Virus record (IMG/VR): IMGVR_UViG_3300029258_002750 | Span: 62,001 to 126,000 of that record | DNA length: 64,000 nucleotides | Source of the DNA: a virus | Strand: one strand, 5' to 3' | Part shown: one piece after another, positions 30,719-33,037 of the stretch | How positions within the stretch are numbered: the first letter of the stretch is position 1 | Layout of the letters: each line of letters starts with the position of its first letter | Made by a program: the position numbers and the translations under genes | Notes under the pieces: model-generated | The model's database searches: none | What the model saw: the letters and a program-made list of their open reading frames with translations, nothing else | What the model was told of the DNA's origin: nothing

Positions 30719-31665
30719 GCCTCTTCGATCGCGTGTTGGGCGAGGAAATCGGCGCGGCCGGATCCTGGGATCAGACCAACCCGGTCGGGGTCTCGAAGCA
30801 GTCCCGCAAGGTGATCGGGAACTTCCCGCTTCCGCTCAACAGGAGGCGGAAGAAGGGAGAGCGGCTCGACCCGAACCTGTACACCGAGCAGCAGCCTGCC
30901 CCGATCTCAGGCTGGGTTGTGCTGCGCTACCCAGCTGGCACGAAGCACGCGGGCAAGGCCGATGTCGTAATCGGCAAGGGCGGCGATCGGAAGCGGGCGA
31001 AGAAGATCGCCGACTCACTGCGGTGGATCTACGGCAAGCGGGTGAAGACAGAGGGCAGGTACGATCCCAGTCGGTGCACGAACACGGTCATGCGGGCATT
31101 CGGTGTCTGCGCCAACGACGCCATGAACACCGGGCATATTCTCAGCGGCTTGCGCCAGGCGGGGTGGAAGTATCAGCCGGTTCGACTACCGTGGGACAAG
31201 AAGACAAAACTGCGCGACTTCGTGAATTCGCATCCGAAGGGGCGCTACGTGATCGGTGTTCGTCGACACGCGATGGCCCTTATCGACGGGAAACTGATCG
31301 ACACGACGGAGAAAGGCCCGGACGGTAGGCACGTCAAGGACGTCTACGTCGTATGGCGAGCAGGCGAACCGACGCCCACGTTCGAGGACGAGCAGCCGTC
31401 GTTCAAGGTGCTGAGGAAGGGCCGCAAGCCGCTCGACCCCGAGGAACGGCAGCTCTGCTTCGATCGGAAGGCCGTCTGGCACAACCGGCTCAAGCGGAAC
31501 GAGAAGACTGGCGAGATCGAGCACCTGCCGACGCCAGCCGTCTGGAAGTCCGAAGTGGACGGCAAGACCTGGTACGTGACGAACACGCACCGGGCCTACA
31601 ACGTGACGCCGACGCTGAAGGCTACGATCAAACGGTTTCACGACTTCATCAGGGGCACGGCGTGA
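30715..31665 (+). CDS. Papain-like cysteine peptidase candidate with SLFDRVLGE tag
   Basis: 316 residues, GTG start. N-terminus VSLFDRVLGEEIG is the recurring tag. Residues about 118-205 show a Cys followed by Asn and a later His-Asp: RCTNTVMRAFGVCANDA and RYVIGVRRHAMALIDGKLIDT, the order of papain-fold (NlpC- or YopJ/AvrPph-like) peptidases. If active it could process virion proteins or cut peptidoglycan. Assignment rests on the Cys and His motifs alone. Confidence 0.45.
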   Translation: MSLFDRVLGEEIGAAGSWDQTNPVGVSKQSRKVIGNFPLPLNRRRKKGERLDPNLYTEQQPAPISGWVVLRYPAGTKHAGKADVVIGKGGDRKRAKKIADSLRWIYGKRVKTEGRYDPSRCTNTVMRAFGVCANDAMNTGHILSGLRQAGWKYQPVRLPWDKKTKLRDFVNSHPKGRYVIGVRRHAMALIDGKLIDTTEKGPDGRHVKDVYVVWRAGEPTPTFEDEQPSFKVLRKGRKPLDPEERQLCFDRKAVWHNRLKRNEKTGEIEHLPTPAVWKSEVDGKTWYVTNTHRAYNVTPTLKATIKRFHDFIRGTA

Positions 31666-31721
31666 GCCTCTACGATCGGGTGCTCGCGGAGGAGGACCGG
31701 GGGGCTGTTCGCACGCTCTAC
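31662..31721 (+). pseudogene. Orphaned 5' end of HAD-phosphatase gene, cut by HNH insertion
   Basis: GTG at 31662 overlaps the previous TGA and encodes MSLYDRVLAEEDRGAVRTLY, then meets the 3' end of the HNH gene. The gene at 32297 contains a second, recoded version (VLLSEDRG...VRTLY) just before its catalytic motif. So the 20 codons here look like the original start of that gene, separated by the insertion. Confidence 0.6.
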
Positions 31722-31724
31722 GCG

Positions 31725-32216
31725 TCAGGGAACGTGCGTCCAGGTGCGCCCCTGCTTGATGTGGGCGATGGCGCTCTTGCTGACGCCGAGCGATGTGGCG
31801 ATGGCTTGCAGCGATTCTCCGGTCTTGAGGCGTTGTCGGATGCCCGGGATGTCGGCCTCGACGAGTTGCGCCTTCCTGTTCTTCGACCCTCTCCTGTCGT
31901 CAAACCGACCCTTTCGCGAGCAGTCTTCCATGTTCCTCTTCTGGGTGCCGAGGAACAGGTGGTCAGGATTCACGCAGGCCGGTGTGTCGCAGGAGTGGCA
32001 GACATTCATTCCCGGGGGGATGCTCCCTTTTTCCAGCAGGTAGGCTATCCGATGGGCACGTTGTTCTTTTCCCCATCGGATGTGCCCGTACCCGTCGTGG
32101 TTCACCGCCCCTGTCCAGAGCCAGCATCCGCTCTTCGTGCGACGAACTCTGCTCCAGAGTCGTGTCTCGATTGGGGTGTGGTGCGAGAAGCGCGGGGTAT
32201 GATGGTTGGTGGCCAT
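31725..32216 (-). CDS. HNH homing endonuclease
   Basis: 163 residues, ATG 32216 with AAGGAGG upstream. GCWLWTGAVNHDGYGHI, RAHRIAYLL, NVCHSCDTPACVNPDHL and GTQKRNMEDC are the classical phage HNH pattern with His-Asn-His and zinc Cys residues. The C-terminus (LKTGESLQAIATSLGVSKSAIAHIKQ) is a helix-turn-helix for site recognition. It lies opposite to the flanking genes and splits one of them; it lacks the DRLG box, as expected for a newcomer. Confidence 0.9.
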   Translation of the reverse strand: MATNHHTPRFSHHTPIETRLWSRVRRTKSGCWLWTGAVNHDGYGHIRWGKEQRAHRIAYLLEKGSIPPGMNVCHSCDTPACVNPDHLFLGTQKRNMEDCSRKGRFDDRRGSKNRKAQLVEADIPGIRQRLKTGESLQAIATSLGVSKSAIAHIKQGRTWTHVP

Positions 32217-32247
32217 CGTGCCTCCTTCACAGGCTCGGCGGTCTGCG

Positions 32248-32273
32248 CAGCCCGGAGCCCTAACTCCGGGCTG
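32248..32273 (-). other. 10-bp hairpin in HNH leader
   Basis: CAGCCCGGAG-CCCTAA-CTCCGGGCTG is a perfect 10-bp inverted repeat with a 6-nt loop, about 32 nt upstream of the HNH start on the minus strand. It may limit HNH expression, as leader hairpins do for some phage homing endonucleases, or stop plus-strand transcription. Confidence 0.5.
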
Positions 32274-32296
32274 TCGCCTTCTGCAAGGATAGTAGC

Positions 32297-33037
32297 GTGA
32301 GACGGCGGGGGTTGAAGGTGCTCCTGTCGGAGGACAGGGGGAGTGACCTAAAGGTAAGAACACTATATATTTATGACTTCGACGACACGCTGGTCTACTC
32401 GCCGCCGGTCGAGCACATCCGTGACATCACGAAGGCGAGCAGCATCGTCGGCAAGCCGATCAAGGCCAAGCCTCAGGTGCGCGTGGCCTACCAGCGAGCG
32501 AAGCGGGATCACCTGGGCAAGGTCATCGTGATGACCGGCCGGATCAACACGCCCGAGCTGCGGAAGGCCGTGAAGAACGCGCTCGATCAGGCGGGCTACC
32601 CGGGCCACAAGCACGGCCGCGACCTCTTCCTCAAGGACCCGAAGGTGCGCCGCACGGCCGAGTGGAAGAAGAAGATGCTGCGCGGCCTCATGCGCCGGTT
32701 TCCGAACGTGACCTCGGTGCATATGTGGGACGACCGGGGCGAGCACGTCGAGCAGTTCCGCAAGCAGATCAAGGATCTCGGCCGCCAGGACCACGTCGTG
32801 CACGTCGCCGAGAGCCTCTACGACCGGATCATCGAGAGCTACCCGAACCGGCCTCGCGGACAAGCTCGCGACACGCCGGTACTATCCAAGGGGGAGAAAC
32901 CGCCGCCCGAGGCGCCAGCCGAAGAGCCTGAACAGCCGATGGACAAGCCGTTACCTGGGAACGTGAGTCCGAGAGCGTTCATGAGAGGAGCAGGTACAAG
33001 GGCTCAACGCATGAGAGGACCAAGGCCGCCTCGATGA
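32297..33037 (+). CDS. HAD-superfamily phosphatase with resected N-terminus
   Basis: 246 residues from GTG 32297 (CAAGGAT upstream). Catalytic motif I YIYDFDDTLVYSPP (DxD), motif II VIVMTGR, and late motif HMWDDRGEHVEQF match HAD phosphohydrolases, in the branch seen in phage 5'/3' nucleic-acid end-processing enzymes. The first 20 codons duplicate the orphan start at 31662. Residues 174-185 (AESLYDRIIESY) repeat the SLYDRVL tag. The AT-rich patch at 32349-32376 differs from the GC-rich surroundings. Confidence 0.75.
   Translation: MRRRGLKVLLSEDRGSDLKVRTLYIYDFDDTLVYSPPVEHIRDITKASSIVGKPIKAKPQVRVAYQRAKRDHLGKVIVMTGRINTPELRKAVKNALDQAGYPGHKHGRDLFLKDPKVRRTAEWKKKMLRGLMRRFPNVTSVHMWDDRGEHVEQFRKQIKDLGRQDHVVHVAESLYDRIIESYPNRPRGQARDTPVLSKGEKPPPEAPAEEPEQPMDKPLPGNVSPRAFMRGAGTRAQRMRGPRPPR

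What the first reader, a model, noticed from the sequence alone, without database searches (positions are those of the whole stretch)
31662..32376. HNH gene splits a phosphatase gene and supplies a recoded 5' end
Seen: the 5' piece reads VLAEEDRGAVRTLY and the downstream gene has VLLSEDRG...VRTLY just before its catalytic DFDDT. VRTLY is encoded by GTTCGCACGCTCTAC on one side and GTAAGAACACTATAT on the other: every codon is synonymous yet different, and the second is strikingly AT-rich. Established: free-standing homing endonucleases can spread with flanking sequence. Inference: the recoded copy both restores the gene and escapes cleavage.
Basis: partly seen in the sequence, partly recalled or inferred. 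Interest (0 to 1): 0.75.

Follow-up and report, generated by a model that had tools for sequence, protein, structure and literature searches.

The report
Phage homing gene with replacement gene-start
In a large T4-like phage, a selfish DNA-cutting gene sits inside a phosphatase gene and has brought a differently spelled replacement for the broken gene's beginning, and the whole package appears to have jumped as one unit between two diverged phages, much like a natural "home-and-rescue" gene drive.

Summary
An antisense HNH endonuclease gene (31725-32216) separates MSLYDRVLAEEDRGAVRTLY from a HAD phosphatase ORF with its own second 5' end (MRRRGLKVLLSEDRGSDLKVRTLYIYDFDDT). All five VRTLY codons differ. 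The recoded block 32348-32374 is the most AT-rich 27-mer of the window and its rarest-codon stretch. Key new evidence is one related contig, L005: its flanks differ by 10-16%, but 31710-32382 (HNH plus recoded 5' end) has one mismatch in 673 bp, at the same site. So HNH gene and replacement 5' end moved as one unit. No relative with an uninterrupted gene was found, so continuity of the original gene is inferred. Escape from cleavage is untested; the AT-rich block could instead be an HNH promoter/operator. The 5' end probably is a capsid-targeting leader: MSLYDRVLAE belongs to a leader family shared by unrelated proteins of these phages, aligns gap-free with T4's MKTYQEFIAE, and usually carries [LI]xE; the genome has a gp21-type protease. 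The substitute leader keeps the motif (LSE). Nearest known kind: fungal mitochondrial endonuclease ORFs carrying a foreign gene terminus. I found no phage case described. New variant of a known kind.

The parts
31662..31721 (+). Native 5' end of the phosphatase gene: GTG start, probable capsid-targeting leader MSLYDRVLAE (31662-31691), then EDRGAVRTLY
31662..32300 (+). 212-aa frame that now continues from the native 5' end through the antisense of the HNH gene and stops at TGA overlapping GTG 32297 (openness of this frame is unremarkable: 35% of control stretches)
31710..32382 (.). Mobile unit: 673 bp, one mismatch (32293) to L005 while the flanks differ by 10-16%
31725..32216 (-). HNH endonuclease gene, 163 aa (HNH_3 plus C-terminal helix-turn-helix), ATG at 32214-32216, SD AAGGAGG just upstream
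32248..32273 (.). Perfect 10-bp inverted repeat (CAGCCCGGAG-CCCTAA-CTCCGGGCTG) between the two divergent reading frames
32285..32289 (+). AAGGA, ribosome-binding-site-like, 7 bases before GTG 32297
32297..33037 (+). HAD phosphatase ORF (HAD_SAK_1; PHROG polynucleotide kinase) with element-borne 5' end; substitute leader MRRRGLKVLLSE ends at 32332
32348..32374 (+). Recoded block CTA AAG GTA AGA ACA CTA TAT ATT TAT (LKVRTLYIY); its minus strand holds the only ATAAATA (32368-32374) of the 275-kb contig
32375..32389 (+). Catalytic DFDDT codons, host-type codon usage, right edge of the insertion

Best explanation
A free-standing HNH homing element has inserted into a phage HAD-phosphatase gene at the codons just before the catalytic DFDDT motif, cutting off the native start (a probable capsid-targeting leader MSLYDRVLAE plus EDRGAVRTLY). 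Besides the antisense endonuclease gene, the element carries a ribosome-binding site, a start codon, a substitute leader (MRRRGLKVLLSE) and a recoded copy of the lost codons, so that the phosphatase ORF is complete again. The unit moves as a whole between diverged phages. Shown: the anatomy, the recoding, near-identity of the joint HNH-plus-5'-end unit in two phages whose flanks have diverged, intact HNH and HAD motifs. Inferred: that the gene was continuous before insertion, that HNH cleavage of the uninterrupted site drove the transfer, that the chimeric phosphatase works, and that recoding protects the carrier from cleavage (about 50%).
For: One mismatch in 673 bp inside the unit against 17/169 and 70/446 in the flanks, same insertion point. 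Homologous 5' ends with divergence concentrated at the junction codons. Recoded block is the extreme of the window in GC and codon rarity. HNH_3 motif, conserved residues, best solved fold match I-HmuI. SD and start codon in front of the replacement end. Leader function: the leader family, its [LI]xE motif, the T4 IPIII match and the S77 protease, with LSE kept in the substitute.
Against: Only one comparison contig; no uninterrupted allele found, so the empty site is not demonstrated. Near-identity shows joint transfer but not that HNH cleavage caused it. HNH activity, phosphatase activity and cleavage resistance are untested. Identical unit in two contigs could in principle reflect a mis-join, if both come from related samples.
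Confidence: 0.72

Rival explanations
1. Same insertion and joint mobility, but the AT-rich recoding serves HNH expression, not escape: it embeds a promoter, perhaps with an operator made from the altered homing site as in I-TevI, for the antisense HNH gene inside the phosphatase codons.
For: The block lies 132-158 bp upstream of the HNH start on the minus strand, is the most AT-rich spot of the window and holds the contig's only ATAAATA. The T4 precedent is a modified homing site overlapping the I-TevI late promoter (PMC2988022). RNA of the HNH leader can pair its SD with UCCUUGC, as in RBS-occluding T4 hairpins.
Against: The phage itself does not use ATAAATA elsewhere; the consensus scan found no minus-strand sigma-70 site there. 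An AT-rich recoding gives such motifs easily.
Confidence: 0.3
2. The second 5' end is simply foreign: it came from a diverged donor gene by ordinary recombination next to a resident HNH gene, with no role in protection or rescue; the codon difference is donor codon usage and drift.
For: Part of the replacement end (VL..EDRG) shows ordinary divergence with GC-rich codons. Foreign gene ends beside endonucleases are known from fungi.
Against: AT-richness is confined to nine codons at the junction and stops exactly at the DFDDT codons; the rest of the unit is 62% G+C. The transferred tract ends at the insertion edges.
Confidence: 0.2
3. The upstream MSLYDRVLAEEDRGAVRTLY is not the lost start of this gene but an independent small leader gene, and the phosphatase always began at MRRRGLK.
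For: Many unrelated genes here begin with the same leader, and the upstream frame stays open for 212 codons.
Against: EDRG...VRTLY is shared by both ends (nine residues in order), and the shared VRTLY lies exactly at the two edges of the inserted unit.
Confidence: 0.1
4. The insert is a group I intron or similar spliced element carrying HNH.
For: HNH genes often live in phage group I introns (established knowledge).
Against: No Rfam intron match even at E = 1. The HNH gene is antisense and fills 492 of 673 bp, leaving little room for a ribozyme.
Confidence: 0.03

Closest known systems
Fungal mitochondrial mobile ORFs carrying a foreign gene terminus (Allomyces atp6; Glomus atp6/atp9/cox2/nad3, PMC3630166; Tremella introns with N-terminal duplications, PMC7315562)
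   Same: Endonuclease gene plus a duplicated, diverged (largely synonymous) end of the host gene that replaces the native end, while the displaced native fragment remains beside it.
   Different: Those carry LAGLIDADG or GIY-YIG enzymes (Glomus), mostly replace the 3' end, lie in sense orientation and in mitochondria. Here: HNH, antisense, 5' end with own start signals, in a phage; the recoding is sharply confined to the junction codons.
Aeh1 mobE splitting nrdA (genes-in-pieces; Friedrich et al. 2007, cited in PMC10448857)
   Same: Phage free-standing endonuclease inside a coding sequence of a nucleic-acid enzyme.
   Different: There both halves are needed and no part is duplicated; here the lost half is re-supplied by the element.
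I-HmuI-type HNH homing endonucleases (HNH_3, PDB 1U3E)
   Same: HNH_3 domain plus C-terminal helix-turn-helix; best solved fold match.
   Different: I-HmuI is intron-encoded; this one is free-standing with no intron detected. Activity unknown.
Engineered home-and-rescue drives (HomeR, PMC7968924)
   Same: Logic: cutter inserted in a gene together with a recoded end that restores the gene.
   Different: Engineered Cas9 system in flies; here natural, phage, single small protein; recoding as protection not shown.
T4 capsid-targeting sequence (IPIII, MKTYQEFIAE)
   Same: Short N-terminal leader ending [LI]-x-E, shared by unrelated proteins; MSLYDRVLAE aligns gap-free; gp21-type protease present.
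   Different: Sequence otherwise distinct; cleavage and packaging not shown.

Membership tests
HNH homing endonuclease (HNH_3, I-HmuI-like) | HNH_3 catalytic domain with conserved H/N residues | tested here: met
   Pfam HNH_3 8e-11; conserved columns in nine relatives
HNH homing endonuclease (HNH_3, I-HmuI-like) | C-terminal DNA-binding helix-turn-helix | tested here: met
   Weak HTH Pfam matches, three C-terminal helices in the model, best solved match 1U3E but TM only 0.35
HNH homing endonuclease (HNH_3, I-HmuI-like) | Cuts the allele that lacks it | not testable with these tools
   Needs a cleavage assay
HNH homing endonuclease (HNH_3, I-HmuI-like) | Gene moves with sharp borders between diverged genomes | tested here: met
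   1/673 against 10-16% in flanks, one pair of contigs
Mobile ORF carrying a foreign gene terminus (fungal mORF type) | Endonuclease ORF linked to a duplicated, diverged end of the host gene | tested here: met
Mobile ORF carrying a foreign gene terminus (fungal mORF type) | Displaced native end remains and matches uninterrupted relatives | tested here: inconclusive
   Fragment remains, but no uninterrupted relative found
Mobile ORF carrying a foreign gene terminus (fungal mORF type) | LAGLIDADG or GIY-YIG enzyme in a mitochondrial gene, sense orientation | tested here: not met
   HNH, antisense, phage
Group I intron with HNH gene | Intron RNA core | tested here: not met
   No Rfam match at E up to 1
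Genes-in-pieces (mobE/nrdA type) | Two non-overlapping halves, both needed | tested here: not met
   The 5' part is duplicated and re-supplied
T4-type capsid-targeting leader | Short N-terminal leader with [LI]xE shared by unrelated proteins | tested here: met
   34 pattern matches in 10 of 12 contigs, 0 in controls; 20 of 28 distinct N-termini have [LI]xE at residues 9-17, background 7% per 10-residue stretch
T4-type capsid-targeting leader | gp21-type prohead protease in the same phage | tested here: met
   Peptidase_S77 over cut-off, with Gp23 and T4 portal nearby
T4-type capsid-targeting leader | Proteins are packaged in the head and cleaved after E | not testable with these tools
   Needs virion mass spectrometry

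The most novel reading that the evidence does not exclude
A natural home-and-rescue element in a phage: a homing endonuclease that targets the catalytic codons of a capsid-packaged phosphatase and carries a synonymously recoded, cleavage-immune replacement start with its own ribosome-binding site and a substitute capsid-targeting leader, so that every converted genome keeps the enzyme and its packaging signal.
Probability: 0.4. Interest if true: 0.8.

Novelty: new variant of a known kind. Interest (0 to 1): 0.62.

Why it matters
Homing elements usually survive in coding sequence by splicing or by sitting between genes. A third way, repairing the gene from within with a recoded end, is known from fungal mitochondria; I found no phage case in the papers searched. 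It would be a compact natural counterpart of engineered home-and-rescue drives, testable with one small enzyme and a few short DNA substrates. It also shows how selfish DNA can swap the targeting leader of a phage enzyme. The leader family itself points to a set of probably head-packaged, injected proteins in uncultured jumbo phages.

Tried and rejected
Empty-site search: HAD protein and HAD alignment in viral contigs, the catalytic codons as a degenerate pattern, leader-plus-catalytic-codon patterns, genome contigs, phage records (only remote HAD domains without leader), the upstream gene, and 16 contigs found through the major capsid protein. None has an uninterrupted copy. G006 has the end of the upstream gene, but an intein/HNH-like ORF follows instead of the phosphatase; G011 has the downstream gene but no phosphatase beside it. 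Intron: rejected. The 212-aa read-through frame and the GTGA stop/start overlap at 32297: not used as evidence, since 35% of control stretches are open in that antisense frame and any GTG followed by A gives GTGA. General use of a T4 late promoter by this phage: rejected, ATAAATA occurs once in 275 kb. Other HNH relatives were looked at for the same trick: they appear free-standing, with no evident split gene on a quick look.

Full report
What was checked. The window is part (62001-126000) of a 275-kb virus contig. Codon by codon, the leader part is 20/27 identical at the DNA level, but all five VRTLY codons are synonymous and different. The block 32348-32374 is the lowest-GC 27-mer of the whole window (6 of 27 in a 65% GC sequence), and no other nine-codon stretch among 8,914 is built from such rare codons.

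Mobility. One related contig, L005 (IMGVR_UViG_3300017963_000254), carries the same arrangement. Alignment gives 17 differences in 169 bp on the left and 70 in 446 bp on the right, but one (at 32293) in the 673 bp from 31710 to 32382. At the flank rates roughly 70-105 differences would be expected. The identical stretch begins 12 bp before the left junction and ends 8 bp after the recoded block, so it is the inserted unit itself: HNH gene, hairpin, ribosome-binding site, start codon and recoded 5' end. This shows that the second 5' end is part of the mobile unit. It does not by itself show that HNH cleavage drove the transfer, and it rests on one pair of contigs. Nuclease genes are reported to lie at boundaries of genetic exchange in phages (PMC10448857).

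The endonuclease. Pfam HNH_3 (8e-11) with weak helix-turn-helix matches, PHROG endonuclease families, conserved residues across relatives at 37-49% identity, and a predicted model (pLDDT 78) whose best solved match is I-HmuI (E 1e-3, probability 0.99, but TM-score only 0.35). Relatives elsewhere appear free-standing. No intron family matches.

The host gene. The phosphatase matches HAD_SAK_1 (7e-10) and the phage polynucleotide-kinase family PHROG 415. Its catalytic motif DFDDT starts right after the recoded block. Insertion next to conserved catalytic codons is typical of homing elements (general knowledge).

What the lost 5' end does. A DNA pattern for M-S-L-x-[DE]-R at a start codon occurs 10 times in this contig, all on one strand, and 34 times in 10 of 12 related contigs, with none for the reversed pattern. 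Of 28 distinct N-termini, 20 have [LI]-x-E ending at residue 9-17 (background 7% per 10-residue stretch). MSLYDRVLAE aligns without gaps to MKTYQEFIAE of T4 internal protein III. Such capsid-targeting sequences take proteins into the T4 prohead and are removed by protease gp21 (PMC5694885). The contig has an S77 (gp21-type) protease, a Gp23 capsid protein and a T4-type portal. So the HNH element landed just behind a probable capsid-targeting leader, and the replacement start MRRRGLKVLLSE|DRG keeps the L-x-E motif. That the substitute leader works is inference.

Why recoded. Three readings remain: escape from cleavage; a promoter or operator for the antisense HNH gene (the block's minus strand has the only ATAAATA of the 275-kb contig, and I-TevI offers the precedent of a modified homing site overlapping its late promoter, PMC2988022); or foreign divergence plus avoidance of a direct repeat. 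The sharp confinement to nine codons at the junction speaks for the first two, which do not exclude each other.

Limits. No uninterrupted allele was found. Most related contigs are fragments, so absence says little. Metagenome contigs could not be searched.

Known relatives. Fungal mitochondrial mobile ORFs that carry a foreign end of their host gene (Allomyces atp6 and four Glomus genes, PMC3630166; N-terminal duplications in Tremella introns, PMC7315562) work in a similar way but with other endonuclease families, orientation and, mostly, the other gene end. In phages, a homing endonuclease splits a ribonucleotide reductase gene into two working pieces without replacing a part (Friedrich et al. 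2007, cited in PMC10448857). I found no phage report of an element-borne replacement start in the papers searched, which is not proof of absence. Verdict: a new variant of a known kind, with strong evidence for joint mobility and an open question about the purpose of the recoding.

Noticed in passing
window 17474, 30715, 31662, 45837, 46641; L060 757 and 1086; L061 2422; contigs of L005 and L062-L077: Family of unrelated proteins sharing an N-terminal leader MSL[YFH][DE]RV..[LI]xE, resembling the T4 capsid-targeting sequence: candidates for head-packaged, injected proteins.
   Followed up: partly
L059 5917-8745 (contig 191916-194744): The S77 prohead protease gene is interrupted by an intein (Hint plus LAGLIDADG domains).
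   Followed up: partly
L059 10279-11427: A gene with two HNH_3 domains and HTH lies directly behind the Gp23 capsid gene.
   Followed up: no
L059 1054-1824; L093 about 2187-2876: An ORF just before the T4-type portal gene looks like an intein with an HNH domain; a similar ORF sits before the portal gene in a relative, whose portal gene also appears to hold an intein.
   Followed up: no
L061 2422-3249 (contig 208921): A Zeta-toxin/AAA_33-type (polynucleotide-kinase-like) kinase carries the same leader, so a kinase and a phosphatase may both be packaged.
   Followed up: no
window 32190-32290, minus strand: In a long HNH transcript the HNH ribosome-binding site (AAGGAGG) can pair with UCCUUGC, which is the complement of the phosphatase's own ribosome-binding site; a strong hairpin lies between.
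   Followed up: partly
L005 4531-4750: The relative's phosphatase has an in-frame insertion of about 64 residues with a CxxC pair that the window's copy lacks.
   Followed up: no
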